Shown here: one piece after another, positions 17,026-42,340 of the stretch
How the letters are laid out: each line of letters opens with the position of its first letter
Position numbering within the stretch: position 1 is the first letter of the stretch
The notes under the pieces: model-generated
Databases searched by the model: none
What the model was told of the DNA's origin: nothing
What the model saw: the letters and a program-made list of their open reading frames with translations, nothing else
Position numbers and translations under genes: made by a program
Assembly: GCF_022662575.1 (NCBI RefSeq)
Contig: NZ_JALBFU010000001.1
Span: 880,642-944,641, forward strand
Length of the DNA: 64,000 bases
Direction: 5' to 3'
Source: Luteimonas aquatica
Lineage (GTDB): Bacteria; Pseudomonadota; Gammaproteobacteria; Xanthomonadales; Xanthomonadaceae

Positions 17026-17817
17026 CTACGTCTTCTTGTCCGGCGTGACGGGTGGCGCGACAGGCGCCGCCTGCTTCGCATCCGGAATCGCCTGCAGCTT
17101 GTCCTCCACCCGCACCGGCACCGGCGAGGACGCCTCCAGCACTTCGCCGATCTGCGCCGAAGTCACCTTCTCGGCGACCGAGGCGGTCAGTTTCTCCATC
17201 CAGCCCAGCGTACAGGTGGAAGCGTAGAAGTTGATCCGCGATTGCGCCTGGGCGACATTGCCGACCTGGGCCGTGCTCAGGCTGTCGAGCAATTGTCCGC
17301 GCGCCTTGCGGAAGAGATCGTAGTTCTTCCTCACGCTCTCGGACGGCATGTACGCCGTCGAGTAGTTGCGAAAGAGGTTGTCCGCGAAAGCGAAGCCGCC
17401 GGCGGTCAGCGAAACGATCTGCGCCGAGTTCTTCAACAGCCCCAATCCGAGTGCCGCCAGGCCGCCGACGTCCGAGGTGGTGCTGCGCGCGAAGCGCTGG
17501 TGGTTCTCGGCATTGCCGAGCTGTCCCAGGTAGACGGCGCAATAGACATCGGACAGGGCGAGCCCCAGGTGCAGGTAGCGCTGCAGGTCCGCGCTGGCCG
17601 GCGCCGGGGCCCAGGCCTTGCGCTCGGCATCCTGGAAATTGCCGATCAGCTGCGAAGGATCGCCGTAGTAGCGCAGCACGTCGTGATCCTTGCTGGCGAT
17701 GTCGACGGACGTGGAGACCGCAAGCGGCCCGATGTCGGGCCGCGCGTCGCGCACGGCCATGGCGCTGCAGCCGGACAGCCACAGGGCGCCCAGCAAGACG
17801 ATCGTTCGAATGTGCAT
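17026..17817 (-). CDS. lipoprotein of unknown function
   Basis: Predicted lipoprotein of 263 aa; I do not recognise the family. The ATG chosen follows CTGGGGGGAG and gives MHIRTIVLLGALWLSGC with lipobox LSGC and acylated Cys17. Visible features: a mixed alpha-helical body rich in Ala and Leu, a hydrophobic stretch GGLAALGLGLLKNSAQIVSL near residue 118, four Cys after the lipobox region, and a Pro/Lys-rich tail ending VTPDKKT. It lies alone between the tsf terminator and the effector cluster, downstream of an effector terminator, so it is a separate transcription unit. Its lipoprotein nature matches the neighbouring immunity proteins, but no effector is paired with it in this window. Confidence 0.7.
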   Translation of the reverse strand: MHIRTIVLLGALWLSGCSAMAVRDARPDIGPLAVSTSVDIASKDHDVLRYYGDPSQLIGNFQDAERKAWAPAPASADLQRYLHLGLALSDVYCAVYLGQLGNAENHQRFARSTTSDVGGLAALGLGLLKNSAQIVSLTAGGFAFADNLFRNYSTAYMPSESVRKNYDLFRKARGQLLDSLSTAQVGNVAQAQSRINFYASTCTLGWMEKLTASVAEKVTSAQIGEVLEASSPVPVRVEDKLQAIPDAKQAAPVAPPVTPDKKT

Positions 17818-18030
17818 CTCTCCCCCCAGGAGATCGTTTTGACGGAACTTCCACCTCGATAGAGTCAACGCAGTCCGGCGGGCAAAGCAGACATCGCCGC
17901 GGACGCGCCGTTTCCCCGACGCCGCGCCCGCATCCCGCCTGGCGCGATTATGCGGCGGCGCCGGCTGCCCGGACGCGGAAATGCGTCGCGAAACGCCGGC
18001 AAGAATCCCGGCACGCGCGCCGGAGACGCA

Positions 18031-18060
18031 AACAAAAAGGCCCCCGCCGAGGCGGGGGCC
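18031..18060 (-). terminator. Rho-independent terminator after the last effector gene
   Basis: Read on the minus strand: GGCCCCCGCC pairs with GGCGGGGGCC (18039-18060), followed by TTTTTGTT (18031-18038). It lies 28 bases after the stop of the 18.1-19.5 kb effector and ends that transcript. Confidence 0.85.
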
Positions 18061-18087
18061 TGTTGGTGGCGACCGGACCGGCGCGGA

Positions 18088-19473
18088 TCAGGGGCCGCCG
18101 GGCGTGGGCGCGGACTGCGTCGGCTGCGGCTGCTGGCGCGTCTGCGCCTCCTGCGTCTGGCGCTGCATCTCGGCGCTGATCTGCTGCTGGCTTTGCTCCA
18201 GCGGCACGGCAGCGGCCTGCTGCCTGTCCACGTAGGTGCGGTTCACGTCGAGCGCGTTGTTCGGGTTGCGCTCGACCGCGATGATGCCCTTGCCGTCGGT
18301 GCTGGCCACCACCTCGTCGATCCGCGACATGCCGCGCACCGTCGCCTCGAACGCCACCTGCCCGGCCGCGCGCTGCATCTCGTCGCGGTTCTTGAAGCCG
18401 CCGTTCGGGCCCTGCTTTTCCAGCTGCTCGACGGCCTGGCGGTACAGCGGATTGTCGATGCCCGCGCTGCCCCCGTTCTGCGCCGGCTTGTTGACGCCCT
18501 CGACCTCGGTGCTGGCGGTGGTCTTGCCTTCGAGCAGGGTGCGGTTGATCGACCCCAGCGTATCCTTGCCGGCGATGCCGTCCACGGCCAGGCCGGGATG
18601 CGCGCGCTGGTAGGCCTCCACTGCTTCCTTGGTGTGCTGGCCGTACTTGCCGTCGGTCTCCAGCGGCTGGTTGCGGGCGTCGCGGAAGCCGAGCTGGTTC
18701 AGCGTCTTCTGCAGCTCCTCGATGGACTTGCCCTCCTCGCCCTTCTTCAGCATGCCGTCGGCCATCGGATCAGCCGGGGCGCGCGCCGGCTGCGACTGGC
18801 CGCCCGGCTGCGTCTGGCTGCCGCCGGGCTGCTGCGCGCCCTCCGGCTGCTGGCGGCCGTTCTGGCCCGGCCACTGCGAACGGGTGATGCGGTCGTTGAG
18901 GACGTCGCCCAGATAGCGGCGGAACTGGTCCGGCTCGACCTCGACATGCGCGTGCACGGCCTTGGTGCCGGTGTTGGACTGGGTCACCAGCGGCGCGCCG
19001 TACGGCACGAACTGGCCCTCGGTGAAGGGCGAGCTGCCCTTGGCGCCGTGCAGCACGCGGCCGACCAGCTCCCGGTTGCGATCGGTCGGCGGTCCGCTCC
19101 AGATATTGATCGTGTTGGAGCTGTCGCCGGTGAACTGCACGTAGCCTTCCACCGGGCTCGGCACCATCATGTTGCGGCTGCCGCGGTCGGTCTGCAGGAT
19201 CAGGTCCTTCTTCACCAGCGGGATGCCGTCCTTGTCGCCGACGAAGGAGACCTCCTCCATCGCGCCCTCGACCACGCGGCCCGTGCGCGGGACGCCCTTG
19301 CTGTTGCGTTCCATCAGGTCCGGGTCCTGCGTGCGCTCGGCGCGCGCATTGGAATTCGGATGATGGATCTTCAGAAGATCGTACGCCTGCGCGCCGGTCA
19401 TCCCGTGCGGGACGGTGCGGTTGCTGCTGACGTTTCCATACGGCTCGATTACTGTGATGCGATCGTTCGGCAT
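18088..19473 (-). CDS. T4SS effector: M23-like domain + peptidoglycan-binding domain + XVIPCD
   Basis: Probable wall-targeting effector of 461 aa without signal peptide. Residues about 75-190 resemble an M23/LytM peptidase: RVLHGAKGSSPFTEGQFVPYG and then HAHVEV (His174, His176) match the family's second half (HLHFEV). The usual first zinc ligand, the His of HxxxD, is not in its expected place: PLVKKD has the Asp only. A Gln/Pro-rich linker (200-235) leads to a PG_binding_1 domain (about 240-315) with LQKTLNQLGF and DGIAGKDTLGSI. The XVIPCD is at 338-430 (IDNPLYRQAVEQLEKQG; GGFKNRDEMQRAAG) with a Gln-rich tail. ATG follows GGAG. The upstream lipoprotein gene (72 bases) is its likely antidote. 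Secretion is well supported; peptidase activity is uncertain. Confidence 0.85.
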   Translation of the reverse strand: MPNDRITVIEPYGNVSSNRTVPHGMTGAQAYDLLKIHHPNSNARAERTQDPDLMERNSKGVPRTGRVVEGAMEEVSFVGDKDGIPLVKKDLILQTDRGSRNMMVPSPVEGYVQFTGDSSNTINIWSGPPTDRNRELVGRVLHGAKGSSPFTEGQFVPYGAPLVTQSNTGTKAVHAHVEVEPDQFRRYLGDVLNDRITRSQWPGQNGRQQPEGAQQPGGSQTQPGGQSQPARAPADPMADGMLKKGEEGKSIEELQKTLNQLGFRDARNQPLETDGKYGQHTKEAVEAYQRAHPGLAVDGIAGKDTLGSINRTLLEGKTTASTEVEGVNKPAQNGGSAGIDNPLYRQAVEQLEKQGPNGGFKNRDEMQRAAGQVAFEATVRGMSRIDEVVASTDGKGIIAVERNPNNALDVNRTYVDRQQAAAVPLEQSQQQISAEMQRQTQEAQTRQQPQPTQSAPTPGGP

Positions 19474-19545: not shown

Positions 19546-20409
19546 TCAGGGTGCGGCGACAGGATCCGCGGTCATCCTCCAGCAGCCCCGGTAGGGTTCG
19601 AATCGGTAGGAAATCCCCTCGACGTCGTCGGGAATGCCGACGAGATAGGCGCCGCCAGCCTCCGGCTTGATGTCCAGCGTGATCGGATCGGGCCCCATCT
19701 CGCCGGCGCTGTTGACGATGCGGAAGGCGCCGTCGCGGTAGCGGAGGAAGAACTCGTTGTAGTCCTTCGCCGCCACGGCGATCTTCTGCTCGACATAGCC
19801 GGCCTCGCCCTGGTCGGACATCTGCGCGACCTGCAGCACCGGCGCCGTGTAGCTGGCGCGGAGCTTCTCGTCGCCCGCGAACGCCTTCAGGAACCCGTTG
19901 AAGTCCTTGGCCGGACACTGCCCGCTCGCGGGCGCGGCAGGCGCGGCCGCGAACTTCCAGGACCGCAGGGCGCCGAAGCCCGAGCCGCCCTCCTGCCAGG
20001 CAACGCTGAGCACCGCGACCTGCTGGCTGGCCGTATCGGCGAACTGCACCACGCAGGTCTGCGTTTCCGCGCCGCAGGACGCGAGCTCGGGCGTCTGCTC
20101 GCACAGATCGCGCCGGGCGCCGAGCCCTTTCCGGCAGCCTTCCCAATCCTGCAGCGGCAACCAGCCTTCCGCCGTCAGCGCATCCCGGGTGTCGGCATAG
20201 GAAGCGCCCGCTTTCAGCTTGGCGGCGACCGCCGGCGCGGCCGGGGCCGCTTGTGCCGGCGCTTCCGCCGCCGCCTTCGGTTCCGCCGCCTGCGGTGCCT
20301 GGCCCGCCCCGCTGTCGCAGGCGGCCAGGATCATGGGCGCCGACAGCAGGAGCGCGAATCCCTTCGCAGCCATGGGCACGGACAGGGGCGAGCGGAACTT
20401 CATGGTCAT
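19546..20409 (-). CDS. lipoprotein, probable immunity protein for the M23-like effector
   Basis: Predicted lipoprotein of 287 aa with signal sequence ending LAAC (acylated Cys31), then an Ala/Pro-rich linker (to about 65). The folded part has several Cys (CRKG, LCEQ, ASCG, QTCV, QCPAK, GCW) and no domain that I can name. The start at 20409 was chosen because AGGA lies 14-17 bases upstream (20423-20426); the Met two codons later is an alternative. It is directly upstream of the effector at 18.1-19.5 kb on the same strand, the same layout as the other pairs here. Immunity role is inferred from lipoprotein address, position and pairing. Confidence 0.72.
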   Translation of the reverse strand: MTMKFRSPLSVPMAAKGFALLLSAPMILAACDSGAGQAPQAAEPKAAAEAPAQAAPAAPAVAAKLKAGASYADTRDALTAEGWLPLQDWEGCRKGLGARRDLCEQTPELASCGAETQTCVVQFADTASQQVAVLSVAWQEGGSGFGALRSWKFAAAPAAPASGQCPAKDFNGFLKAFAGDEKLRASYTAPVLQVAQMSDQGEAGYVEQKIAVAAKDYNEFFLRYRDGAFRIVNSAGEMGPDPITLDIKPEAGGAYLVGIPDDVEGISYRFEPYRGCWRMTADPVAAP

Positions 20410-20456: not shown

Positions 20457-22250
20457 TCAGGCCGGCAAGGTCGGCCCGGACGACTTCTGCGTTTGCTGCT
20501 GGTCGTTCCTGCTCTGCTCCTGCGCGCGCGCCTCGGCATCGAAGCTCTGCAGGCGCTCGGCCACCGGCTGCGCCACCGCCTGCTGCCGGTCCACGTACAC
20601 GCGCTGGGTATCCAGCGGGTTGTTCGGGTTGGTCTGCGTGGCGATCAGGCCCTGGCCGTTGGTGCTGGGCACCAGCCCGTCGATCCGCTCCAGGCCGCTG
20701 ACCTTGGCTTCGAAGGCGGTGGTGGCCGCCGCACGCTGCATCTCGTCGCGGTTGCGGAAGCCGCCGTTGGCGCCCAGGCGCTCCAGCTGCGACAGCGCCT
20801 GGTTGTAGAGCGGATTGTCGCGCCCCAGTTCGGCGTTGCCCGGCTGCTGCGGCGTGGGCTGGACGGCGCCCTGGCGCTGCTCGCGGCCCGGCACGGTCAG
20901 GTAGTCCATCGGGTCGACGGCGCGGCCGTTGCGATGCATCTCGAAATGCAGGTGCGTATCGCCCTGGCGCGGCGTGTTGCCGGTGCGGCCCATGGTGCCG
21001 ACCTGCTGGCCGGCCTGCACCTGCTGCCCGTCCTCGACGTTGATGTCCTTCAGGTGGAAATAGCGCGTCACCACGCCGTTGCCGTGATCGATGGTCACCG
21101 TGTTGCCCGCCGCGCCGTTGTTGGGCTGGACGCGGACGGTACCGCTGCCGTAGGCCACGATCGGATCGCCGACATCGCCCTGGATGTCGACGCCGCGGTG
21201 CGTACGCGCGCCGCCGCCGCGCGAGGTGCCGAACTCGCCGCGCCCTTCGCCGGCCTTGTCGGCGCGGTTGATGCCGGTGTTGCCCGGCGCGGGCCAGGTG
21301 CCTTCGGCCTGCGCCGGCGGCGCCGGGCGATTGCGGCTGGCTTCGGGCAGCTGCAGCTGCGCGCCGATGGCATCGCGGGTGCGGCGGTCGGCCACGCCCG
21401 TGGGCTCCAGGTTGTTCGCCTGCTGGAAGCTGCGCACCGACTCGGCGGTACGGTCGCCGTAGATGCCGGAACTGGTCTCCAGCGGTCGATTGCGCGCGTC
21501 GTGGAAACCGAGCTGGTTCAGCGACTGCTGCAGGCTCACCACTTCCGCGCCGCGCTCGCCCTTGCGCAGGACGTCGTCGGCGAGCGGCGATGCCGCAGGC
21601 TGGCCGGGCGTCTGCCTCTGCTGCTGGCCCTGGGTCGGCTGGCGGCCGTCCGTGACCGGCTCGATGCCCTTCTCCGGGATGCGCACGCGATCGAACTTGG
21701 CGTCCCAGTACTGGGTGAAGGCGGTCGCCATCTCGCGCGGCTGCATGCCGCGGAACTCGCTGTAGCGATGGCCGGTGAGGCGCTCGAAATCGTCCGAGCT
21801 GACGTTGGCCAGGATGTTGCGCCGCGTGCTGGGCAGGCTGAACTCGTTGGTGGCGATGGCGTTCTGCAGCGAACGGTAGCCGCCCGAGCCCTGCTGATGG
21901 GCCAGGTACATGTCCAGCCCGTTGGGCTGACCCTCGCCGGACAGGTACGGCCGGCCGTTGCGCGTGTGCGCATTGACCAGGTCGCGGCGGTTGTCCAGGT
22001 ACAGGCGCGCCGCGGCGTCGGTGTTGACCACCGGGTCGAACTCGCGGCCGCTGATGCCGTACTGCGCCGCCGTGCTCGGCATGAACTGGAACAGGCCCTT
22101 GGCGCCGCTGTCGTTGCGGGCGCGCTCGTTGAAGCCGCCGCCGGTTTCGATATAGGCGAAGCGCAGGAAATCGTCGCGCGGAATGCCGCGCTCGTTCGCT
22201 TCGCGTTCTACGATGTCGAGAACTTCCCTTCTGCTGTAATCGCGTGCCAT
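20457..22250 (-). CDS. T4SS effector: transglycosylase + peptidoglycan-binding + M23 peptidase + XVIPCD
   Basis: Effector of 597 aa joining two wall-degrading enzymes. Residues 1-190: lytic transglycosylase/lysozyme-like domain with catalytic Glu35 in AYIETGGGF and the motif GAKGLFQFMPSTAAQYG (49-65). Residues 224-300: PG_binding_1 (LQQSLNQLGFHDARN; RTRDAIGAQL). Residues 318-452: complete M23 peptidase with HRGVDI (His351, Asp355), YFHL (His399) and THLHFEM (His433, His435), so all zinc ligands are present. Residues 476-597: XVIPCD (RDNPLYNQALSQLERLG; GGFRNRDEMQRAA; DRQQAVAQP) with Gln-rich tail. There is no signal peptide. It would cut both glycan strands and peptide bridges. The probable antidote gene is 93 bases upstream. 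Start ATG at 22250 is the only one before the first domain. Confidence 0.92.
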   Translation of the reverse strand: MARDYSRREVLDIVEREANERGIPRDDFLRFAYIETGGGFNERARNDSGAKGLFQFMPSTAAQYGISGREFDPVVNTDAAARLYLDNRRDLVNAHTRNGRPYLSGEGQPNGLDMYLAHQQGSGGYRSLQNAIATNEFSLPSTRRNILANVSSDDFERLTGHRYSEFRGMQPREMATAFTQYWDAKFDRVRIPEKGIEPVTDGRQPTQGQQQRQTPGQPAASPLADDVLRKGERGAEVVSLQQSLNQLGFHDARNRPLETSSGIYGDRTAESVRSFQQANNLEPTGVADRRTRDAIGAQLQLPEASRNRPAPPAQAEGTWPAPGNTGINRADKAGEGRGEFGTSRGGGARTHRGVDIQGDVGDPIVAYGSGTVRVQPNNGAAGNTVTIDHGNGVVTRYFHLKDINVEDGQQVQAGQQVGTMGRTGNTPRQGDTHLHFEMHRNGRAVDPMDYLTVPGREQRQGAVQPTPQQPGNAELGRDNPLYNQALSQLERLGANGGFRNRDEMQRAAATTAFEAKVSGLERIDGLVPSTNGQGLIATQTNPNNPLDTQRVYVDRQQAVAQPVAERLQSFDAEARAQEQSRNDQQQTQKSSGPTLPA

Positions 22251-22343: not shown

Positions 22344-23267
22344 TCAGGGGTTGTAGCTGTTTTGTTCCTTGTCGTAGGCATACGTGGCCGCATCCTGCGC
22401 GCCCAGCGCGCGGGTCTTGCCCGGTGCCTCGATCGTGGTGCCCGACTTGGCCACATGCAGGGCCGGCAGGCCGCCGCCGTCCTTCGCCGCCTGGAACGCC
22501 AGCGTTCCGGTGCTGGACACGCACGGCATCACCTTGCCCTCGTCGCAGGCCGCCGCGTTGTCCTCGCCGGCGACGATACTGCCCACGTAGGCCCAATGCT
22601 GGTCGCGCAGCTTGTCCACCTCGGACGGGTCGAAGACGAACAAGGCGAAACCGGTGGTCGCCACGCCCGAGGCGAAGCCGCTGGTCGGCACGGCCAGCAG
22701 CAGGCGCCCGTCCTGGGTCTCGAAGGTCTGCGGCTGGCGCTGGTCGTCGATGTCCACGGCCTTGCCGTTGTCGCCGAATTCGCCGACGAAGCCGTCGGTC
22801 TCCAGCAGCTTCCACGGCGCCTTGTCCTGCGGCTTGGTCAGCTCGAACGTCGCCTGCGAGATCGCTACCTTGCCCTCGGGCGCCTCCTTTTCCTCTTCGC
22901 CGACCTTTTCCGCGGTCTTGTAGGCGAAGCCGGTGAAGTAATGCTTGCCCTTGAAGTCGAACTGATGGCCGTACCAGTACGTCACCCGGCTGCCGAAGTC
23001 GACCTCGTAGGAAGTGGCCCCGTCTCCATCCTTCTTGTAGATGACGTAGAGCACGCTGTCCGCGGCGGGCGGCTTGATGGCGGTGGCATTCTGGTTGTCG
23101 TTCGGCACGGTCGGAACATCCTGTTTTTTTGTTGAAGAAGCGGGGCTGTCGGCTTGCGAGGCCGTGGCCCCGCTCTCCGCAGCCGCGGTACTGCCCTCGG
23201 GCGCCTTGGCGCAGGCGCCTGACAGCAATACCACCAGCGCGAGGACCAGCGTTTTACTCTGCGTCAT
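22344..23267 (-). CDS. lipoprotein, probable immunity protein for the double-enzyme effector
   Basis: Lipoprotein of 307 aa: signal MTQSKTLVLALVVLLSGAC with acylated Cys19, then a low-complexity Ala/Ser/Thr linker to about residue 70. The rest seems beta-rich, with repeated short segments such as VLYVIYKKDGDG, SYEVDFGSRVTYWYG and GKHYFTGFAYK; two Cys occur late (AAACDEG, MPCVS). I do not recognise a family. It is encoded just upstream of the transglycosylase/M23 effector, same strand. Because that effector has two enzymes, the antidote may bind both or target one; this is inference. Confidence 0.72.
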   Translation of the reverse strand: MTQSKTLVLALVVLLSGACAKAPEGSTAAAESGATASQADSPASSTKKQDVPTVPNDNQNATAIKPPAADSVLYVIYKKDGDGATSYEVDFGSRVTYWYGHQFDFKGKHYFTGFAYKTAEKVGEEEKEAPEGKVAISQATFELTKPQDKAPWKLLETDGFVGEFGDNGKAVDIDDQRQPQTFETQDGRLLLAVPTSGFASGVATTGFALFVFDPSEVDKLRDQHWAYVGSIVAGEDNAAACDEGKVMPCVSSTGTLAFQAAKDGGGLPALHVAKSGTTIEAPGKTRALGAQDAATYAYDKEQNSYNP

Positions 23268-23922: not shown

Positions 23923-25278
23923 TTACTGGGTCGGACCGCTCTGCGTCGGCTGGGACTGCTGGCGGGCCTGCGCTTCCTGCGTCTGGCGCTGCGCCTCGGC
24001 GTTGAACTGCTGCTGGCTCTGCTCCAGCGGCACCTGCGCCGCCTGCTCCCTGTCCACGTAGGCCCGGTTCACGTCGAGCGGGTTGTTCGGATTGCGCTCC
24101 ACCGCGATCAGGCCCTTCTCGTCCTTGCTCGGCACCAGTTCGTCGATGCGCGACATGCCGCTGACCTTCGCCTCGAACGCCACCTGGCTGGCGGCCCGCT
24201 CCATGTCCTCGCGGCTCTTGAAGCCGCCGTTCGGACCCTGCTTCTCCAGCTCCTTCACCGCCTGGTCGAACATCGGGTTGTCGCGGCGCAGCTGGTCGGT
24301 GCCTTGCTGGGTCTCCTGCTGGGCACCTTGCCGGGTTTCCTGCTGCGTCCCCTGTTGCTGCTGCAGCTTCTGGTCGATCGACTTCAGCGTCTCCGGGCCG
24401 GCCTTGCCGTCCACGCCCTTGAGATTGTTGTCTTCCTGGAATTTCCGTACTGCCGTCTCGGTGTCCTTGCCGTACTTCCCGTCCGCGCCTGCCGCTTCCA
24501 GCAAGCCGAGCTTCACCAGCTTCTCCTGCATTTCCTTCACCGCGGGGCCTTCTTCCTTGAGACGAAGGACGCCGTCACCGTTCTCCGGACGCCAACTGCT
24601 CCCGCCTCCCTTGCCACGCGCGGCCTCCTCGCGCACCTTGCCGTTTTCGGCCAGGTACAGGAGGTCGTCTTTCTCGTTCTTGGCCCGATCGAGCAGATTC
24701 TTCCGCCATTCGTCCGAGGAACTGCGGAACAGCGACTCGTTGTGCGCGATCTTGTAGTCCTGGACCGCTTCGATGATCTGCTTGTCCGACAGATCGGAAA
24801 GCTTGTATTCGTCGCCGAACTTCTCGTTCAGCGCCTTCTGGAAAAGCTCCGGCCCATCGATCCTTTTCTTGGCGTTGTTGGGGCCGAACTGGATAGCGGT
24901 GCTCCACATCGCGTCCTGGACCGCGGGACCGCGATCCGACAGGTCGATGCCCTTTTCCTTGAGGTTGTCGACCATCACCCCGTAGTACTTGTCCTTGAAG
25001 AACTGGTCCTGGGCCTTGCCGAAACCCGGATCGTTCGCCGCCAGCTCCTTCCACTTCGCGTTGAACTCCGGGGTAGCCGGCTTCATGCCCGCGAAATCGT
25101 CGGCATAGGCGGATTGCTTGACGAACTCCTGCACGCTGCCTTCGTTGGTCGACAACTGGTGCGTTCCGTAGGACACGCCGCCGTGATCGCCGACGCCGCT
25201 CGACACCGCTCCGGGGCCGGCCTTGCTGCTTTCATATTTTTCGGAAGTGATCCCGAGATGCCATTCTCTATCAGCCAC
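23923..25278 (-). CDS. T4SS effector: lysozyme-like N-terminal domain + peptidoglycan-binding + XVIPCD
   Basis: Effector of 451 aa starting at GTG after AAGGAGACAGAC. Residues 1-205 have the pattern KYESSKAGPGAVSSGVGDHG (14-33) followed by GVSYGTHQLS; the YES...GPGxVSSGxGDxGGVSYGxxQ pattern is met in phage-endolysin-like and VgrG-linked proteins thought to cut peptidoglycan, with Glu16 the probable catalytic acid. I cannot name the family with certainty. PG_binding_1 spans about 235-305 (MQEKLVKLGLL; VDGKAGPETLKSI), then a Gln-rich linker with repeats of QQET-RQGA, then XVIPCD from 331 (RRDNPMFDQAVKELEKQG; GGFKSREDMERAAS) and a Gln-rich tail. The last 508 bases of its gene are nearly identical to those of the GH19 effector. 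Its LprI-like antidote gene is 68 bases upstream. Confidence 0.87.
   Translation of the reverse strand: MADREWHLGITSEKYESSKAGPGAVSSGVGDHGGVSYGTHQLSTNEGSVQEFVKQSAYADDFAGMKPATPEFNAKWKELAANDPGFGKAQDQFFKDKYYGVMVDNLKEKGIDLSDRGPAVQDAMWSTAIQFGPNNAKKRIDGPELFQKALNEKFGDEYKLSDLSDKQIIEAVQDYKIAHNESLFRSSSDEWRKNLLDRAKNEKDDLLYLAENGKVREEAARGKGGGSSWRPENGDGVLRLKEEGPAVKEMQEKLVKLGLLEAAGADGKYGKDTETAVRKFQEDNNLKGVDGKAGPETLKSIDQKLQQQQGTQQETRQGAQQETQQGTDQLRRDNPMFDQAVKELEKQGPNGGFKSREDMERAASQVAFEAKVSGMSRIDELVPSKDEKGLIAVERNPNNPLDVNRAYVDREQAAQVPLEQSQQQFNAEAQRQTQEAQARQQSQPTQSGPTQ
23925..24432 (-). repeat. direct repeat copy 1: shared effector C-terminal module
   Basis: 508 bases coding for the linker end, XVIPCD and tail. 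It aligns without any gap with 26280-26787; by eye I count about 21 mismatches. Identity falls off sharply beyond 24432 into the peptidoglycan-binding domain and N-terminal domain. This points to recent duplication or gene conversion. Confidence 0.9.
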
Positions 25279-25346: not shown

Positions 25347-25895
25347 TCAGCGCGCTTCCAATTCGGCTGCTCGCTTTGCCACCACTTTCAACGCACACTC
25401 GTTCGACTCCAGGCGCTGCGCCTGGCCGCCATAAGGCTCGAGAGGACAGGCGGCATCGCGCTCGGCAAGCCACTTTCTCTCCTCCTCGCGCAGCTTCGTC
25501 TTCTCCGCGTCCGGCAGCTTCGCCATCAGGACTTTGTATGCCTTGTTCAGGCGCGCGTCCTGGTATTCGTACTCCTTCGAGATGCAGTCCTGCATCGCCG
25601 GCGTCACCGCACCGGCGGCGCCGATGCATTCGTCGTAGGACGGGCGCAGCACGGCCGAATCCTCTGCGGGCTGCGGCTCCGGCGCTGCGGCCTCCTCCTG
25701 GGAGGACGACGGGTCGGAAGCAGGCTGCGCGCTGTCGGCGGGCATGGTCGGCGCCGGCTCGGCCGCCGCTGCGGCGGGCGCCGGCGCGGGTTCCGGCGCC
25801 TGTACCTGGCCCGCGGCGGGAGAGTCGCCACCGCATGCCGCCAGTCCGCACAGCGTCAGCAGGCAGCAGAATTGAAAAGCCTTGATGGTCGTCAT
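25347..25895 (-). CDS. LprI/DUF1311-like lipoprotein, probable lysozyme-inhibitor immunity protein
   Basis: Lipoprotein of 182 aa, signal ending GLAAC (Cys21), after AGGAAG ribosome site. An Ala/Pro/Glu linker (30-80) leads to a LprI-like domain, residues 86-170: PSYDECIGAAGAVTPAMQDC, then LNKAYKVLMAKLPDAEKTKL and REEERKWLAERDAAC. Four Cys (90, 104, 150, 167) match the pattern of the DUF1311 family. LprI of Mycobacterium tuberculosis is a lysozyme inhibitor, which fits protection against the lysozyme-like effector encoded 68 bases downstream. Domain call is from sequence pattern; the specific pairing is inferred from position. Confidence 0.85.
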   Translation of the reverse strand: MTTIKAFQFCCLLTLCGLAACGGDSPAAGQVQAPEPAPAPAAAAAEPAPTMPADSAQPASDPSSSQEEAAAPEPQPAEDSAVLRPSYDECIGAAGAVTPAMQDCISKEYEYQDARLNKAYKVLMAKLPDAEKTKLREEERKWLAERDAACPLEPYGGQAQRLESNECALKVVAKRAAELEAR

Positions 25896-26065
25896 GATGG
25901 AAACTTCCTTGCCATGCAACACACGGGAAACCGGCGTGGCTCGATCGGCGGATCGGAACCACGACATAGCCGGTTGGATTGAGAAGCCACGATCACTGAT
26001 GGATACGACGATTCGTATCGCCACGGGACTGGCATGACCGCATACCGGCAATCCGTTCCGGCGCC

Positions 26066-26161
26066 CGGGCGAGTGCAGCATTCCATGCCGCTCGCGAAAA
26101 TGACTCGCCTGATCGTCAGGCCCGCCCAGGCATCTTAATCAGTTCCACAGCCCGGCACCAG
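26066..26161 (-). repeat. intergenic repeat copy 2 (shared promoter segment)
   Basis: Second copy of the segment at 23615-23710, same length, two compensating one-base gaps. It lies upstream of the LprI-like / lysozyme-like pair. Confidence 0.75.
26108..26137 (-). promoter_or_regulatory. palindromic operator candidate and -10 box, copy 2
   Basis: CCTGATCGTCAGG (26108-26120): same half-sites as copy 1 but a different centre. TAAGAT is the complement of 26132-26137, 11 bases from the palindrome. The half-sites and -10 box are kept while bases around them differ, which suggests they matter. Confidence 0.5.
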
Positions 26162-27693: not shown

Positions 27694-28383
27694 TTAGGGC
27701 AGGACCACCTCCGGGATTGTCGAGGGATCGAAATCCGCGAAGGCAACCTGCCCGAAGTCCTTCGATGTGAACGTCTTCGAGACGCTCTCCTGTGAAATCT
27801 GATCGTATGCGGTGCGCTCCACCTTCTGAAGGCGCCAATCGCTCGATGCCGCCGCGTACTCGAACTTGTACTCGCTCGACCAGCGCTGGCGCGAACCGCC
27901 CTCGATCAGCACCGTGAAGCCGTCCTTGTCGATGCGGACATAGCCGAACGGATCGCCGGCGATGCCTCCGCACTTCGCGCAGGGCACGATCCTGTCGTTC
28001 TGCCCGGCCTTCTGCAGCCGTCCGCCCGCATCGCGGACGAGCAGAAGCACCGTGCGCGACGCGCGCTCGTCCGGCTTCCCGGCCGTGGCCGGATCCAGAA
28101 CGAGGATGGCGTCAGGCCTGCCGTCGCCGTTGAGATCGCCCGTCTTGGAGGCAAGAAGTGTTTTGCCGTCGGTGGCGAAGGCGTTCAGATCATCCATCGT
28201 TCCGTCCTGGGGGCGCTCGGAAGGCTGCGCCGCCTCAGGCGCTGCGTTGGCGGCCGGCTGCGGCTGCTCGGAAACGCCGGCCTGCGCAGCCGTTGGCGCA
28301 GGCGTTTCCGCGCTGCACGCGACTGACAATGCGCAAAGCAGCAGCACCTGTACGGGCCGAGAGAAGTCCAATTTCGATGTCAC
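27694..28383 (-). CDS. lipoprotein immunity protein of Xac2610 type
   Basis: Predicted periplasmic lipoprotein of 229 aa. I place the start at GTG 28383 because AAGGAT and GGCGG precede it and the signal peptide VQVLLLCALSVAC (Cys23) follows closely; an upstream ATG at 28488 would put a long extension before the signal. Residues 83-91, DLNGDGRPD, form a calcium-binding-type loop. The known antidote of the Xac2609 lysozyme effector, Xac2610, is a beta-propeller lipoprotein with such a loop, and here the gene is directly upstream of the GH19 effector. QRWSSEYKFEYAAASSDWRL is typical of the later strands. Function inferred by analogy and position. Confidence 0.82.
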   Translation of the reverse strand: MTSKLDFSRPVQVLLLCALSVACSAETPAPTAAQAGVSEQPQPAANAAPEAAQPSERPQDGTMDDLNAFATDGKTLLASKTGDLNGDGRPDAILVLDPATAGKPDERASRTVLLLVRDAGGRLQKAGQNDRIVPCAKCGGIAGDPFGYVRIDKDGFTVLIEGGSRQRWSSEYKFEYAAASSDWRLQKVERTAYDQISQESVSKTFTSKDFGQVAFADFDPSTIPEVVLP

Positions 28384-28415
28384 TGATCCGCCTATCCTTA
28401 CCCAACCAATCGGTC

Positions 28416-30188: not shown

Positions 30189-30266
30189 CGTCGTTCGCCT
30201 TCCGCCGCGCACGCTGCGCGGCTGTTCGTCTATCTGTCCGTTGCGCCTGTAATGCCGCGTCGGTTC

Positions 30267-36571: not shown

Positions 36572-37720
36572 TCAGCCCTCGTTGGGGATCACGCCGACGA
36601 AGTCCACATCCTTGGAGACGTAGATGTTCAGCAGCGTTCCCTGGTTGATGGTGACGGTCGGCGGACGGCTCATGCTGCGCTGCAGGGCCTGGTTGGCCAG
36701 GTTCTCCATGGTGCGGGCGGTCGCGCTCTCGTAGGGCGACTGCACGATGACGCCGCCCTGCGAGATCTCGTTCCTGGTCGGACCATGCTCGGCCGCGGCG
36801 TACTTGAAGGCGTCCGCGATCAGGCTGATCATCAGCGCGGAAGCGATCTTGCTCGGCCAGTGCGCGTTGAACTTGCCGGGATGGCCGGCGCTGCCGAGAT
36901 TGTCGACGCCGGGGCTGCGCATGCTGATGTCGAACCCGTTCGGCGTGGTGATCCGGTCCCAGATCACCGCGATCCGCGGCCCGGAAGGCTCGGTATCGTA
37001 GGCGCCGAGCACCTTGGAACCCTTGGGCAGCAGCAGCTTGCGGCCGTTGATCGAGTACACCGGCTCGGTGACGATGCAGGACGTGAAGCCCGGAACGTCG
37101 GTGATGATGCGGGTTTCCAGGATGCAGCGGATGTAGGTGCCGCGCACCAGCAGGGTATCCGGGTTGCGGATCACCTGGGCCTGCGAGACGTCCTCGCCGT
37201 CGCCTCCGAGGAGGCCGCCGGGACCCGCGCCCTGCGGCGGCGGCGCGACGCCGGAAGACGGGCTGTTGTTGCTCCCTTCGGCCAGGAGGCGGCGCTCCAG
37301 CAGCGTGGGCTGGCGCGGGCCGTCCGAGTAGGCGTCCTGCTGCTGGCCGGCCCCGGCGGGCGGCGGCGGCAGCGGCGGCACCTCGCGCAGCGCGATCGGT
37401 TCCGCCGTGTCAGCCCCCGGCACCTGCGGCGCGCCCTGCGGGAGGTCGGGCACGACGACGGCCTGCTGCGGCTTCTTCGGCGCCTCGTCCTTCTTGTCGC
37501 CGGAACCGCCGAAGAACAGGAAGTAGATCAGCGGGATCAGCAGCACCAGCAAGAGCAACAGGAAGATCATTGCCTTGCGGTTGACGCGCTGGTCCTCGTT
37601 CGACTTCAGCTCGGGCGCCTGGGCATCCAGATCCGGAGCGGCGTCCTCGTTCTGCGAGCCGCCGTAGTACGGATTGTTGGTGTCGTTTTCGTTTTCGTTC
37701 GGCGGTAGGTTCTGGTTCAC
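36572..37720 (-). CDS. virB10: T4SS core channel protein VirB10
   Basis: Core complex scaffold that spans both membranes, 382 aa. The GTG start overlaps the virB9 stop (GTGA). Cytoplasmic Asn-rich N-terminus, TM helix KAMIFLLLLLVLLIPLIYFL (about 49-68), Pro-rich periplasmic linker (74-125), then the TrbI/VirB10 beta-barrel domain: LLVRGTYIRCILETRIITD, GRKLLLPKGSKVLG, and RPPTVTINQGTLLNIYVSKD near the end, the conserved C-terminal signature. All family landmarks are present. Confidence 0.95.
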   Translation of the reverse strand: MNQNLPPNENENDTNNPYYGGSQNEDAAPDLDAQAPELKSNEDQRVNRKAMIFLLLLLVLLIPLIYFLFFGGSGDKKDEAPKKPQQAVVVPDLPQGAPQVPGADTAEPIALREVPPLPPPPAGAGQQQDAYSDGPRQPTLLERRLLAEGSNNSPSSGVAPPPQGAGPGGLLGGDGEDVSQAQVIRNPDTLLVRGTYIRCILETRIITDVPGFTSCIVTEPVYSINGRKLLLPKGSKVLGAYDTEPSGPRIAVIWDRITTPNGFDISMRSPGVDNLGSAGHPGKFNAHWPSKIASALMISLIADAFKYAAAEHGPTRNEISQGGVIVQSPYESATARTMENLANQALQRSMSRPPTVTINQGTLLNIYVSKDVDFVGVIPNEG

Positions 37721-38493: not shown

Positions 38494-39363
38494 TTAATTG
38501 GTAGCCGGCAGTGGCTGCTGCGGCACAGTTCCGGGGGGCGGTGGGATCACGCCCGCGTCCCCGACCGCCGGCTGGGCGGCGTCGGGCGAGGCGGCGGCGG
38601 GCGGCGCGGCCTGGGGCGCCGGCGCCGTCGGCACCTCGGGCACCGCCGGCGAGGCGTAGTCGTTGTCGGTGCGGTAGCTGGTCACCTGGAAGCCGAGCGG
38701 GTTCTCGATGCGCGCCTGGTCGCTCATCTGCAGGTTCGAGTCGTAGGTGAACTCGAGCGTGGCGATCTTGTTGTCCAGCGGCGAGGTGCCGCCGTTGACC
38801 TTGTTGTAGATGCTGCGCTGCAGGCGCACCGTCGCGCCCTTGTAGGGCTTGCCGTTGCCGCCGATCAGCACGATGCTGTTGATCTTGACGCGGATGGCGC
38901 GCTCCTTGCCGTAGATCTTGTACGGGCTGGCGGCGCTTCCGTAGAGCTGCTTCAGGCTCGACAGCACGTCGCCCTCGGACATGGTGTAGACGGTGGTCCA
39001 GTCGCGCAGGTTCATGATCGAGTAGTCGTAGGACTCTCGCGCCAGCACGTAATGGGCGACGTTGCTGCGATTGATCGCCTCGCTGGTGGTGATCGAATTG
39101 TTGCGGAAGTCGTCGCGCAGCCTGGCGACGGTGCTGGTGCCCGTGTAGGCGTCGGCCATCACCAGGTACGGCACCTTCTCCTTGAGCGGGAGCACGTAGA
39201 AATAGCTGCACGCCATGATCAGGCACAGCACCAGCGCGCTGCCCGCCACCCACCAGGCACGACGCTCGCTGCGGCGCGCGATGTCGGCGATCGTGATTTC
39301 GAAGTTGACCGACTTCGAGACGGTATCCTTGACTTTCGACGTGGCTGTCTTGTTATTGGACAT
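38494..39363 (-). CDS. virB8: T4SS inner membrane complex protein VirB8
   Basis: Bitopic inner-membrane protein, 289 aa: cytoplasmic N-terminus, TM helix AWWVAGSALVLCLIMACSYF (about 36-55), then periplasmic NTF2-like domain with VPYLVMADAYTGTSTVARL, AHYVLARESYDYSIM and YNKVNGGTSPLDNKIATLEF. The final 50 residues are Pro/Ala-rich and disordered, longer than in Agrobacterium VirB8. Sits between virB7 and virB9. Confidence 0.94.
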   Translation of the reverse strand: MSNNKTATSKVKDTVSKSVNFEITIADIARRSERRAWWVAGSALVLCLIMACSYFYVLPLKEKVPYLVMADAYTGTSTVARLRDDFRNNSITTSEAINRSNVAHYVLARESYDYSIMNLRDWTTVYTMSEGDVLSSLKQLYGSAASPYKIYGKERAIRVKINSIVLIGGNGKPYKGATVRLQRSIYNKVNGGTSPLDNKIATLEFTYDSNLQMSDQARIENPLGFQVTSYRTDNDYASPAVPEVPTAPAPQAAPPAAASPDAAQPAVGDAGVIPPPPGTVPQQPLPATN

Positions 39364-39447: not shown

Positions 39448-39873
39448 TCAGGGCGCGGCGGGCGCGGCCTGTGCCTCGGAACCGCCCGAGGGGCGCACCA
39501 CGATCTGCCTGCCGTCGCTGGAGATCGACACGCCCTGCGCGGCATAGGCCGTGTTGAGCTGCGAGATCGCCTCCTGCAGGTTGAGCGTGTGGATGTCCGA
39601 GACCTGCGCGTACAGGGTGAAGTCCGACGGGTGCAGGTAGGACAGCGTCAGCTTCGAGTCCCGCGCCCAGCGGGTGAGCATGTTCTTCAGCGTGCCGTCC
39701 ATCGGCGACGGGTAGAAGGCGTAGTTCTGGTAGAGCGGGATCGCCTCGGTCGTCTCGGAGAAGCGGTTGACCGGCTTCCAGCGCCCGCTGATGTCCGGCG
39801 CGGGGCGCGTCGCGCAGCTCGCCAGCACGAGCGCGAGCGGGATGAGGGCCAGGAGTGAGATACGTTTCTTCAC
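39448..39873 (-). CDS. virB7: T4SS outer membrane lipoprotein VirB7 with N0 domain
   Basis: Lipoprotein of 141 aa starting at GTG (after GGTGGAAGC). Signal MKKRISLLALIPLALVLASC, Cys20. Residues 25-50 hold the VirB9-binding segment. Residues about 55-130 form a globular N0-type domain: DGTLKNMLTRWARDSKLTL, TLYAQVSDIHTLNLQEAIS, SISSDGRQIVVRP. Classical VirB7 is short; the extra N0 domain, similar to secretin domains, is the mark of the xanthomonad T4SS. First gene of the virB operon, with its likely promoter upstream. Confidence 0.92.
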   Translation of the reverse strand: MKKRISLLALIPLALVLASCATRPAPDISGRWKPVNRFSETTEAIPLYQNYAFYPSPMDGTLKNMLTRWARDSKLTLSYLHPSDFTLYAQVSDIHTLNLQEAISQLNTAYAAQGVSISSDGRQIVVRPSGGSEAQAAPAAP

Positions 39874-40289
39874 GCTTCCACCGGTCGAAGATTGGAAATA
39901 GGGAATGCCCGCAAGCGCGTTGCGGGAATGGCGGGGCGCCAGCCGGACGTCGCGACGAGCGCGCCGACAAGGCCCGAAAGATGTCTTGGATGAACCAGGG
40001 ACGCCGCATGGGAGTCGACCTTCAGGGCCGGACGGCAGCGCCAGGCGCCGGAACGTCCCGCCGTTCGGGTTCTACCCGCCATCCCCTGTTGCAGTGCCCT
40101 TGGCCGCTGCTTTGGAAAGTACAACTGAACCCCCTGCCGAACTCGGCTCCCTGTTCGCCCACAAATCCTGCCGGCCAAACGTGACGACTATCACAATCCG
40201 GCCGGGTATGTTCACGAGAAGTTATCCTGTAAGTGAACCGTTGGTCAAGATGCATTAATTGTTAAGAGACGCCGGAACCCCGTTTCGAC
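39874..40289. other. 416-base gap between virD4 and virB7
   Basis: No gene is seen. It contains the candidate virB7 promoter near 40221-40248 and a leader of about 340 bases in which I see no convincing terminator or riboswitch. Being long, it is a natural site for control of the secretion system. Confidence 0.5.
40221..40248 (-). promoter_or_regulatory. candidate sigma-70 promoter of the virB operon
   Basis: On the minus strand: TTGACC (40248-40243) as -35 and GATAAC (40226-40221) as -10, 16-base spacer. Transcription would begin near 40213. This is the best match in the gap upstream of virB7. A virD4 read-through transcript is also possible since virD4 is on the same strand. Confidence 0.5.
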
Positions 40290-41975
40290 TCAGAAAGATA
40301 GCTTCGGGACGTCAACCTTGGGCAGCAGTCTCTGGGTGAAGTACTTGTCCTTGTAGTACTTGATCTTGTCGCACATCACCGGATGCGGGATGCCCTCGTA
40401 CAGGAACACCTCCCGGTCGAACCCCATCGCCTTGAGTTCCTGGGGCAGCATCAGCGCCCGCCTCTCCTCGCTCTCGGAGATGGTCACGCTGCCCTGCTGG
40501 CCGTGCGAGCGCGAGCGGTTGCGCTTGCGCAAGGTGGTGTAGCCCAGCATCTCGGAATAGTCGTTGGCGTCCTGCTGCTCGCGCGGGGCGTAGATGATCT
40601 GCAGGGCATGGTTGGTGATGATGGTGCGCGAGACGTCCTTGCCGTAGGTGGCGTCGAGCTGCGACATGCTCTGGATGATCGGCAGCAGGCGCACGTTGTA
40701 GCCGGCCATGTACGAGACCGCCGAGGCGATGATGTCCACCTTGCCGATGGAGGTGAACTCGTCCATCAGCAGCAGGCACTGGTGCTTGAGCTCCGGGTTG
40801 TTCTGCGGCAATTCCTTGGTGTTGACGTTGATCAGCTGGCTGAAGAACAGGTTGATGATCAGCCGCGACTCGGACAGCTTGTTGGGCTGGATGCCGATGT
40901 AGATGGTCATCTTCTTCCTGCGCACGTCGGTGAGCAGGAAGTCGTCGGCGCCGGTGGCCGCGTCCAGGATGGGGTTGATCCAGGGATTGAGCGGCTCCTT
41001 GAACGTGCCCATGATCGAGGCGAACGTCTCGTCGGCCTGGGAGAGCATGTTGGCGAAGGCGCTCTTGGCGTTGCTGCTGAGGAAGCGGCGCTGCGACAGG
41101 CCGGTCAGGTATTTCTTCAGGTCGGTGCCGTCGCCCGAGGAGAGCCGGTAGATCGCGCCGAGGGTCGGCGCGCCGTGCGCCCCGGGGAAGCCGGTCTGGA
41201 TCTCGTCGTCCCAGTTCTCGAACAGGTACAGGGTGAACGCCATGAAGGCGTTGCGGGCCTGGCTGACCCAGAACTTCTGGTCGTCCGAGCCGTCCGGGTA
41301 CAGCATCGCAGCGATGCTCATCAGGTCGGAGACGCGGAAGGCCGGATCGCTGGAGACGTAGCTGAGCGGGTTCCAGCGGTGGGTGCGCCGGTCCTCGGCG
41401 AAGGGGTTGAACAGGAAGATCTCGTGCCCGATCGACTTGCGCCAGCCCGAGGTCAGGTCGAAGTTTTCCTGCTTGATGTCCAGCACCACCATCGATTCCT
41501 GGTAGTCGAGCAGGTTCGGGATCACCACGCCCACGCCCTTGCCCGATCGGGTGGGCGCGGCCAGGATCACGAACTGCTGGCCGCCCAGGCGCACCAGGTC
41601 GCCCTTGAACTTGCCCACCACCACGCCGTTCTTGGAGGGCTTGAGCAGGCCCTGCTTGGACAGGTCCCCGCTGGTGGCGAAACGCGCCTCGCCGTGGGTG
41701 GACTTGGGCTTGGGCTTGAGGATCAGGATCAGCAGCGTGGCATAGGCCAGCAATGGCAGCCCGAAGCCGATCGCGCCGGCCGCCTTGATCTTGCCCACGT
41801 ACGGCTTGACCTGCGGCAGGTCCATCGCCTGGACGTAGGTCCAGTAGACGTTCCACTTCATGCCTCCCGAATTGAGCTTCAGGAACAGCAGCGTCAGATA
41901 GCCGGAAAGATAGAGCCCCACGAAAACCGCAAGCAGCCCCAGCGCTGCCGCGAAAACGACCTTGCCTTTATTCAC
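40290..41975 (-). CDS. virD4: T4SS coupling protein VirD4
   Basis: Effector receptor ATPase, 561 aa from a GTG after GGGGAT. Two N-terminal TM helices (about 6-32 and 64-86), then the nucleotide-binding domain with Walker A APTRSGKG (140-147) and Walker B CLLLMDEFTSIG. An all-alpha domain lies between them (about 245-400), which binds the XVIPCD in the known system. Conserved end LPQELKAMGFDREVF. An in-frame extension to 42398 overlaps another gene and is not coding. It is transcribed before virB7 but separated from it by 416 bases. Confidence 0.95.
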   Translation of the reverse strand: MNKGKVVFAAALGLLAVFVGLYLSGYLTLLFLKLNSGGMKWNVYWTYVQAMDLPQVKPYVGKIKAAGAIGFGLPLLAYATLLILILKPKPKSTHGEARFATSGDLSKQGLLKPSKNGVVVGKFKGDLVRLGGQQFVILAAPTRSGKGVGVVIPNLLDYQESMVVLDIKQENFDLTSGWRKSIGHEIFLFNPFAEDRRTHRWNPLSYVSSDPAFRVSDLMSIAAMLYPDGSDDQKFWVSQARNAFMAFTLYLFENWDDEIQTGFPGAHGAPTLGAIYRLSSGDGTDLKKYLTGLSQRRFLSSNAKSAFANMLSQADETFASIMGTFKEPLNPWINPILDAATGADDFLLTDVRRKKMTIYIGIQPNKLSESRLIINLFFSQLINVNTKELPQNNPELKHQCLLLMDEFTSIGKVDIIASAVSYMAGYNVRLLPIIQSMSQLDATYGKDVSRTIITNHALQIIYAPREQQDANDYSEMLGYTTLRKRNRSRSHGQQGSVTISESEERRALMLPQELKAMGFDREVFLYEGIPHPVMCDKIKYYKDKYFTQRLLPKVDVPKLSF

Positions 41976-42031
41976 AACGTATCGATCCCCGAAATTCTTG
42001 GCGCCGCTTCGACCTGAGCCCGTCCGCCGTC

Positions 42032-42340
42032 CTAGCCAAGGAACCGCAGCAGCTTGCGGCCCACGCCCACACCCTTGCCGCGCTTGGAGGCGCGCCGCTT
42101 GCTCGTCCGCTCGACCGGCGGCAGCTGCGGATCCTGCTCCTGCTGCTGGGTCTCCTCCCCGGCCAGCCGCTCCAGCCAGACCCGGGCGCTCTCCAGCGTC
42201 AGCTCGTGCCGGATCTTGGCGCCGGACAGGGTCATGACCTCGTAAGCGAGGATCTCGCTCGGATCGTATTCCCGGCCGTCCGTGATGGCCATGACCTGAT
42301 ACCCGCCCTGGATGAGGATGGGATGCCTGTATTCCGTCAT
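42032..42340 (-). CDS. small hypothetical protein upstream of virD4
   Basis: Protein of 102 aa that I do not recognise. Very strong ribosome site AAGGAGGACGACCCG before the ATG. The first 65 residues look like a compact fold (HPILIQGGYQVMAITDGREY; AYEVMTLSGAKIRHELTLES). The end is strongly basic (TSKRRASKRGKGVGVGRKLL) and could touch nucleic acid or membrane lipid. No signal peptide or TM. It ends 56 bases before virD4 on the same strand and is probably cotranscribed with it, so a role in T4SS expression or effector handling is possible but not shown. Confidence 0.7.
   Translation of the reverse strand: MTEYRHPILIQGGYQVMAITDGREYDPSEILAYEVMTLSGAKIRHELTLESARVWLERLAGEETQQQEQDPQLPPVERTSKRRASKRGKGVGVGRKLLRFLG

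What the first reader, a model, noticed from the sequence alone, without database searches (positions are those of the whole stretch)
17026..42340. Bacteria-killing T4SS with a four-pair effector arsenal fused to its operon end
The strand, order and content (virD4, virB7-11, virB1-6, DUF4189, then lipoprotein and effector genes) show a T4SS dedicated to killing and not to DNA transfer: no relaxase, and every secreted protein has an XVIPCD and peptidoglycan-related domains. Known from Xanthomonas and relatives (X-T4SS); what is new here is the specific set of effectors and how they are arranged.
Basis: partly seen in the sequence, partly recalled or inferred. Interest (0 to 1): 0.75.

Follow-up and report, generated by a model that had tools for sequence, protein, structure and literature searches.

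The report
Bacteria-killing secretion system with four toxins
A bacterium carries a known kind of needle that injects wall-cutting toxins into rival bacteria; comparing it with relatives suggests that such needles come in two versions that read different cargo tags on the same kinds of toxin.

Summary
Window 17026-42340 (minus strand) is a complete bacteria-killing T4SS (X-T4SS), probably in a Luteimonas: virD4, virB7-11, virB1-6, a DUF4189 gene, then four lipoprotein/effector pairs. All four effectors carry the XVIPCD secretion tag; VirB7 matches Xanthomonas citri VirB7 with its N0 domain. The kind is known. Corrections: the effector array may not be one transcript, and there is a fifth, unpaired lipoprotein.

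The new part came from relatives. Of 41 genomes of the genus, 23 have this T4SS; 10 of the 23 have no XVIPCD match, and all 10 have proteins ending in an unrelated short tail that Pfam and NCBIfam do not hold. Of 25 tail proteins scanned, 18 have toxin-type domains; 35 of 55 tail genes follow a lipoprotein gene (18 of 176 control genes do). VirD4 splits into two deep clades. XVIPCD-type VirD4 follows a gene for an 80-102 aa protein (19 of 20 loci; window 42032-42340). Tail-type VirD4 follows an unrelated, longer gene (16 of 16). I propose two cargo-recognition types sharing one channel and one toxin pool, with the small protein helping VirD4 take XVIPCD cargo. None of this is shown experimentally.

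The parts
42032..42340 (-). 102-aa protein gene directly upstream of virD4; conserved, family unknown; proposed helper of VirD4 for XVIPCD cargo
   Evidence: Homologues on the same strand just before virD4 in 19 of 20 XVIPCD-type VirD4 loci, none in 16 tail-type loci; 80-102 aa in the 22 read out, one genome twice; alignment A5; no family in Pfam or NCBIfam; third codon positions vary most against L. panaciterrae (18, 15, 29)
40290..41975 (-). virD4, coupling protein (GTG start at 41975 likely; the open frame runs on to 42398)
   Evidence: PF02534 E 4e-110; frame and starts
39448..39873 (-). virB7 lipoprotein with N0 domain
   Evidence: 6GYB chain a E 4e-38, 3OV5 E 5e-21
38494..39363 (-). virB8
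   Evidence: PF04335
37717..38472 (-). virB9
   Evidence: PF03524; 60-76% identity in the 80 loci kept
36572..37720 (-). virB10
   Evidence: PF03743; only match in the genome
35516..36553 (-). virB11
   Evidence: PF00437
34544..35446 (-). virB1 (SLT); start uncertain
   Evidence: PF01464
34021..34569 (-). virB2 pilin
   Evidence: PF04956
33720..34028 (-). virB3
   Evidence: PF05101
31130..33583 (-). virB4
   Evidence: PF03135
30267..31211 (-). virB5 by position (start uncertain)
   Evidence: No Pfam match; 24-33% identity to the same slot in some relatives
28968..30212 (-). virB6
   Evidence: PF04610
28416..28907 (-). DUF4189 protein with an apparent signal peptide (read from sequence); usual neighbour of virB6
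   Evidence: PF13827; within 2 kb after virB6 on the same strand in 55 of 55, 39 of 41 and 11 of 11 loci in which both were found (of 80, 60 and 20 loci)
27694..28488 (-). lipoprotein A, putative immunity protein in the place of X. citri XAC2610
   Evidence: lipobox-like end of a signal peptide read from sequence; weak FG-GAP; no match in PDB sequences at E 0.1
26278..27615 (-). effector A: GH19 + PG_binding_1 + XVIPCD
   Evidence: first 214 residues match 7R6S (E 1e-79), XVIPCD matches 7MU9 (E 2e-19)
25347..26081 (-). lipoprotein B with LprI lysozyme-inhibitor domain
   Evidence: PF07007 E 8e-21
23923..25278 (-). effector B: VgrG3-like lysozyme + PG_binding_1 + XVIPCD
   Evidence: PF21277 E 8e-67; 3' half 88.5% identical in DNA to effector A over 687 nt
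22344..23267 (-). lipoprotein C, putative immunity protein
   Evidence: no family; homologue beside the effector-C homologue in G123 and in four tail-type genomes
20457..22250 (-). effector C: SLT + PG_binding_1 + M23 + XVIPCD
19546..20358 (-). lipoprotein D, putative immunity protein (start uncertain)
   Evidence: LAAC lipobox; no family
18088..19473 (-). effector D: M23-like N-terminal domain not in Pfam + PG_binding_1 + XVIPCD
   Evidence: profile A4 hits the end of phage hub 8KEA E 7e-13; conserved HHP, Asp, LH and HxH
17026..17868 (-). lipoprotein E, unpaired; beyond a terminator-like hairpin
   Evidence: LSGC lipobox; hairpin 18061-18038; homologue in 2 of 297 family genomes, own included
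149..1378 (-). separate XVIPCD effector with Lipase_3 domain, outside the finding

Best explanation
This is a chromosomal X-T4SS. VirB1-11 form the envelope channel and pilus; VirD4 at its base picks up cytoplasmic effectors by their C-terminal XVIPCD and hands them to the channel, which delivers them into a neighbouring Gram-negative cell. There the four locus-encoded effectors cut peptidoglycan: glycan strands (GH19, VgrG3-like lysozyme, SLT) and cross-link peptides (M23 and an M23-like domain). The lipoprotein gene in front of each effector encodes its immunity protein, held in the periplasm. Ten further XVIPCD matches elsewhere in the genome add to the arsenal. Shown here: gene content, order, domains, tag and VirB7 N0. 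Inferred from the family: VirD4-dependent delivery, killing and immunity pairing. My own addition: the 102-aa protein encoded before virD4 belongs to the XVIPCD-reading module, because it travels with XVIPCD-type VirD4 and an unrelated protein stands in its place where VirD4 is of the tail type.
For: Twelve-subunit locus; XVIPCD in 4 of 4 locus effectors and 14 PF20410 matches in the genome, none in 14 control genomes; effector A matches the solved VirD4-interacting domain 7MU9; same order as the X. citri virB7-xac2609 transcript (passages of PMC7286519); single VirB10 match in the genome; no T6SS VipA match in this genome. For the small gene: 19 of 20 against 0 of 16 loci; in stretches from 82 genomes small 21, long 19, both 0.
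Against: No experiment. VirB5 is named by position. Effector D's catalytic competence is unclear: its family lacks the usual first M23 histidine. Lipoprotein E has no partner, so pairing by adjacency is not perfect. A relaxase elsewhere in the genome was not excluded. The small-gene association follows one deep split of VirD4 and so may be shared ancestry and not function; 8 of 26 named loci with virD4 had neither neighbour gene detected, and one XVIPCD-type VirD4 locus (G038) lacked the small gene.
Confidence: 0.92

Rival explanations
1. A conjugative or mobilising T4SS that also carries toxins.
For: VirD4 also scores against conjugal TraG/TraD models; T4SS and conjugation genes share ancestry.
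Against: No relaxase domain in 37 window proteins scanned; the locus sits between tsf and a tRNA-Arg/aldehyde dehydrogenase pair on a 1.3-Mb contig with housekeeping genes; VirB7 N0 and XVIPCD effectors are X-T4SS marks.
Confidence: 0.03
2. The effector array is not one unit with the T4SS operon: pairs C and D and lipoprotein E are separately transcribed and only lie nearby.
For: 655-nt gap before lipoprotein C; terminator-like hairpins after effectors B and D (but 13 such sites were found with 10.0 expected in shuffles); lipoprotein E lies beyond the second hairpin.
Against: All on one strand; gaps of 196 nt or less (with overlaps) from virB6 through effector B; no promoter-like site in 16900-29000 (a weak test); the X. 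citri transcript runs through its effector.
Confidence: 0.45
3. The short tail in relatives is not a T4SS tag but a T6SS or unrelated C-terminal module, and its link with VirD4 is shared ancestry.
For: 17 of 174 family genomes without a VirB9 match have tail matches; 7 of 20 genomes with XVIPCD-type VirD4 also have some; tail-type loci form one clade, so genomes are not independent.
Against: In the genus, tails do not follow T6SS (4 of 13 genomes with VipA, 15 of 28 without) but do follow VirB9 (17 of 23 against 2 of 18); nine loci have tail genes downstream of virB6 on the operon strand; the homologous toxin and lipoprotein pair C occurs with either tag.
Confidence: 0.2

Closest known systems
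X. citri X-T4SS with X-Tfe/X-Tfi XAC2609-XAC2610
   Same: VirB7 with N0; virD4, virB7-11, virB1-6, one extra gene, immunity, GH19 effector; a conserved ORF of unknown function before virD4 is noted there (PMC7286519 passages; that it is the homologue of the window's small gene is inferred from Xanthomonas loci)
   Different: Four pairs instead of one at the locus; effector B (VgrG3-like lysozyme with LprI partner), SLT-M23 and M23-like effectors; an unpaired fifth lipoprotein
Luteimonas panaciterrae Gsoil 068 locus (G123/L115)
   Same: Closest relative with both locus halves read: VirD4 84%, VirB4 81%, pair C 74-85%, lipoprotein E 57%, small gene 70%
   Different: No pair-D homologue seen in the stretches read (L083, L084); an XVIPCD effector with two PG-binding domains stands where pairs A and B are here
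Tail-type X-T4SS of other genus members (G266/L097, G178/L102, G316/L098, G312/L111)
   Same: Same channel genes, DUF4189 gene, lipoprotein-effector pairs, homologous SLT-M23 effector at 60-64% identity
   Different: No PF20410 match in these four genomes; short unrelated tail; VirD4 of another clade; unrelated longer gene before virD4

Membership tests
X-T4SS (criteria of PMC6536674, Table 1 note) | chromosomal location | tested here: met
   1.3-Mb contig G000:C2 with rpsB, tsf, GlnD and MurB genes around the locus
X-T4SS (criteria of PMC6536674, Table 1 note) | VirB7 with C-terminal N0 domain | tested here: met
   6GYB and 3OV5 matches
X-T4SS (criteria of PMC6536674, Table 1 note) | all twelve class A subunits | tested here: met
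   eleven by family or structure match, VirB5 by position only
X-T4SS (criteria of PMC6536674, Table 1 note) | effectors with C-terminal XVIPCD | tested here: met
   4 of 4 locus effectors, 14 matches in the genome
X-T4SS | VirD4-dependent, contact-dependent killing | not testable with these tools
   needs competition assays
X-T4SS | no relaxase or oriT at the locus | tested here: inconclusive
   no relaxase among 37 window proteins scanned; oriT and the rest of the genome not searched
Conjugative T4SS | relaxase linked to the locus | tested here: not met
   none in the locus proteins or in the flank proteins scanned
Tail-type X-T4SS (proposed here) | proteins with the short tail in the genome | tested here: not met
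   own genome has 0 matches to A1 at E 0.01 and 0 to A2 at E 0.001 (20 of 50 candidates scored)

The most novel reading that the evidence does not exclude
X-T4SSs come in two cargo-recognition types that share one channel and one pool of toxin and immunity modules. Type X (this window): XVIPCD tag, one VirD4 clade, and a small 80-102 aa protein encoded before virD4 that acts as a still missing adaptor. Type T (12 of the 14 genus loci in which VirD4 was read, and loci in at least three other genera): a short C-terminal tail of about 40 conserved residues plus a variable end, a deeply separate VirD4 clade, and an unrelated 190-240 aa coiled-coil/membrane protein in the same slot. Toxins change type by swapping their C-terminal tag.
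Probability: 0.55. Interest if true: 0.75.

Novelty: new member of a known kind. Interest (0 to 1): 0.52.

Why it matters
The window's system is another example of a known weapon. The comparison matters more. If a second tag exists, effector lists built only on XVIPCD miss the arsenal of many genomes (10 of 23 T4SS-bearing genomes of the genus had no XVIPCD match). How VirD4 of a minimal T4SS selects cargo is open: a 2025 review describes the X. citri coupling complex as VirD4 alone (PMC12624023 passage), while another paper says that Oka et al. 2022 proposed an unidentified adaptor (PMC10432156 passage; Oka 2022 itself not read). The gene at 42032-42340 is a concrete candidate, and homologous toxins that carry either tag are a natural domain-swap experiment.

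Tried and rejected
Effector D fold: AlphaFold2 on the single window sequence gave mean pLDDT 36; discarded, no fold search made. The fold of the small protein (alignment A5, window and named loci only) was never accepted because the machine was full.

tRNA-Arg as integration site: the tRNA lies with its 5' end towards the locus, the wrong side for usual tRNA integration; not pursued.

VirD4 exchanged onto another channel: in a first VirB11 tree of 64 rows the loci now known to be tail-type fell in two places. A cleaner set of 29 rows put all 10 tail-type rows on one side, support 98/95, so I dropped the claim of an exchange; the two types look like two lineages whose VirD4s differ more (stem 0.77) than their VirB11s (about 0.08).

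A residue-by-residue comparison of VirD4 between types gave a long list of separating positions, but its XVIPCD-only side held one sequence, so I drew nothing from it.

Tail as a piece of XVIPCD: profile comparison found no similarity (probability 0.06%). Tail in libraries: at most 2 of 55 members hit any one Pfam family at E 0.01, none hit NCBIfam; PDB hits (best E 0.007) were short helical stretches, mostly of designed proteins.

Named loci searched for both tags (80 loci): 0 XVIPCD and 0 tail hits, because they end near virB6; uninformative. Rows dropped before counts: G298 (VirB9 E 1.6e-11) from the 24 VirB9-positive genus genomes; G158 (branch 4.38) and the partial VirD4s of G255 and G214 from the VirD4 counts; loci in which no VirD4 was found.
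Full report
WHAT IS THERE. The window is G000:C2:880642-944641 of a 3.8-Mb genome. On the minus strand, from 42340 down: a 102-aa gene, virD4, virB7, B8, B9, B10, B11, B1, B2, B3, B4, B5, B6, a DUF4189 gene, then lipoprotein A / effector A (GH19), lipoprotein B (LprI) / effector B (VgrG3-like lysozyme), lipoprotein C / effector C (SLT, M23), lipoprotein D / effector D, and lipoprotein E, which ends 64 nt from the convergent tsf gene. All four effectors have PG_binding_1 and PF20410.

EFFECTORS. Effectors A and B share a 3' half that is 88.5% identical in DNA over 687 nt, while their N-terminal halves gave no match to each other; this points to shuffling of the PG-binding/XVIPCD module. Effector D's N-terminal 200 residues match no Pfam model, yet relatives occur in 53 of 297 family genomes, in open frames of 312-1370 aa. 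A profile of 31 members hits the end of a phage hub (8KEA, E 7e-13) and, at E 0.19 or worse, M23 peptidases such as ShyA. Members keep a C-terminal HxH, an LH and an Asp; the usual first zinc histidine of M23 (recalled) is absent and an HHP motif lies far upstream. That HHP supplies the missing ligand is a guess. The genome holds 14 PF20410 matches, so the four pairs are a minority of the arsenal.

OPERON. Gaps from virB6 through effector B are 196 nt or less. Then come 655 nt with a terminator-like hairpin after effector B, and another hairpin after effector D. These scans are weak evidence (13 sites, 10.0 expected). Transcription as one unit through all four pairs is unproven.

THE TAG IS NOT UNIVERSAL. 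In 41 genomes of the genus, VirB9 relatives at E below 1e-40 occur in 23 and PF20410 matches in 14. Ten VirB9-positive genomes have no PF20410 match. In six of these (L093, L094, L097, L098, L102, L111) a gene downstream of virB6 and the DUF4189 gene encodes an effector that ends in a different short tail. It is Lipase_3-like in the three that were scanned (L093, L094, L097); four of the six also have a homologue of effector C with such a tail. Profile A1 (11 tails from these six loci) finds tails in 19 of 41 genomes. All 10 VirB9-positive genomes without XVIPCD have tail matches; all 6 without tail matches, this one included, have XVIPCD; 7 have both; none has neither. Two of 18 VirB9-negative genomes (G162, G320) have tail matches.

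IS THE TAIL REAL. In the loci fetched, 55 of 55 proteins that match A1 at domain E below 0.05 do so within 45 residues of the stop; the one weaker match does not. Eleven of the 55 are the seeds, which were cut from C-termini, so the free test is 44 of 44. The loci were fetched because A1 matched there, but the place in the protein was not a condition. Of 25 tail proteins scanned with Pfam, 18 have toxin-type domains (Lipase_3, Tle1, SLT, M23, GH19, VgrG3-like lysozyme, M91, calpain; a few below the curated cut-off), 3 only PG-binding or LysM domains, and 4 none. By a crude pattern, an upstream lipoprotein gene precedes 35 of 55 tail genes and 18 of 176 control genes. The tail has no similarity to the XVIPCD profile. 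In the family, profile A2 (55 tails) matches 88 of 297 genomes (at most 20 candidates scored in each, so a lower bound) and VirB9 123 of 297: 71 have both, 52 VirB9 only, 17 tail only, 157 neither. I assume that the two draws of 297 are the same genomes. A T6SS marker is not linked with tails in the genus: 4 of 13 genomes with it and 15 of 28 without it have tails.

TWO VirD4 TYPES AND TWO NEIGHBOUR GENES. I read stretches around virB9 in 82 genomes: 60 family genomes (about 20 kb, less where contigs end), 20 of the genus (an upstream and a downstream stretch each), G123 and the window. In these stretches 24 loci hold XVIPCD effectors, 9 hold tail effectors, 0 hold both and 49 neither; six of the nine were used to make the tail profile. 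VirD4 of tail loci falls in one clade of 16 of the 37 rows, with a long stem (0.77, support 100/97). All 16 of those genomes have tail matches; of 20 genomes with the other VirD4, 7 also have tail matches. Median identity to the window's VirD4 is 67% for the tail clade (n 16) and 77% for the others (n 19), against 79% (n 8) and 81% (n 18) for VirB4. Just before virD4 on its strand, the 102-aa family of this window is found in 19 of 20 loci of its own VirD4 type and in none of 16 of the other. All 16 tail-type loci instead have there an unrelated protein of about 190-240 aa with a coiled-coil-like start, one hydrophobic segment and a Cys-containing end (read from sequence). Over the 82 genomes: small 21, long 19, both 0; in two of the small and two of the long cases no virD4 was seen in the stretch. 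Neither family has a convincing match in Pfam or NCBIfam.

READING. The two types look like sister lineages (VirB11 tree, support 98/95), so the strong counts above largely reflect one old split, not many independent events. Still, three things that should meet at the entry of the channel - tag, coupling protein and its neighbour - differ between the lineages more than VirB4 or VirB11 do, while homologous toxin/lipoprotein pairs occur in both with different tags. The simplest account is a change of cargo recognition. That the small protein is an adaptor is the least secure step (I would put it near 0.35); that the tail is a T4SS tag is firmer (near 0.8).

AGAINST. Tail matches occur in 17 genomes without a VirB9 match and in some XVIPCD-type genomes. 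Where I read tail genes of genomes with XVIPCD-type VirD4 or an XVIPCD effector at the locus (G123, G116, G159), 1 of 6 had an upstream lipoprotein (counted afterwards), so these tails may be another class. Three genomes with tail-type VirD4 (G144, G305, G306) still have one or two PF20410 matches. Eight of 26 named loci with virD4 had neither neighbour gene detected.

LITERATURE. PMC6536674: outline, section 4, section 12 part 1, and passages. PMC7286519, PMC10432156, PMC10933484, PMC6759196, PMC10025392, PMC12624023: passages only. PMC10989847: outline with abstract. PMC11253643: a term search without a hit. Souza 2015 and Oka 2022 were not read. I found no second tag for X-T4SS in the listings; no paper held both DUF4189 and 'type IV secretion'. 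The library lacks most subscription journals.

Noticed in passing
L093, L094, L097, L098, L102, L111; matches in 20 of 54 genera of the family sample: Short C-terminal tail on toxin-like proteins, not in Pfam or NCBIfam, found where XVIPCD is missing in many genus members with this T4SS.
   Followed up: yes
window 42032-42340; long counterpart e.g. L354:1577-2155 (-), L236:4044-4625 (-): Two unrelated gene families, never found together, occupy the slot before virD4 and match the two VirD4 clades.
   Followed up: yes
window 28416-28907: DUF4189 gene is a usual neighbour downstream of virB6 in X-T4SS loci; no role found in the one paper search made.
   Followed up: partly
window 17026-17868: Unpaired lipoprotein E, with a homologue in one other of 297 family genomes, there too next to an XVIPCD effector.
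   Followed up: partly
window 149-1378: Lipase_3 effector with XVIPCD at the window edge.
   Followed up: partly
window 18865-19473; alignment A4: M23-like domain family of effector-type proteins without a Pfam model, related to a phage tail-hub domain.
   Followed up: partly
G000:C33:206835-207637: Two XVIPCD matches about 0.3 kb apart, in open frames of 1370 and 245 aa; perhaps a split or duplicated effector.
   Followed up: no
window 42479-42555 and 24-42 kb: tRNA-Arg (CCT) next to the locus; GC is 61-66% between 24 and 42 kb against 66-76% in the rest of the window.
   Followed up: partly
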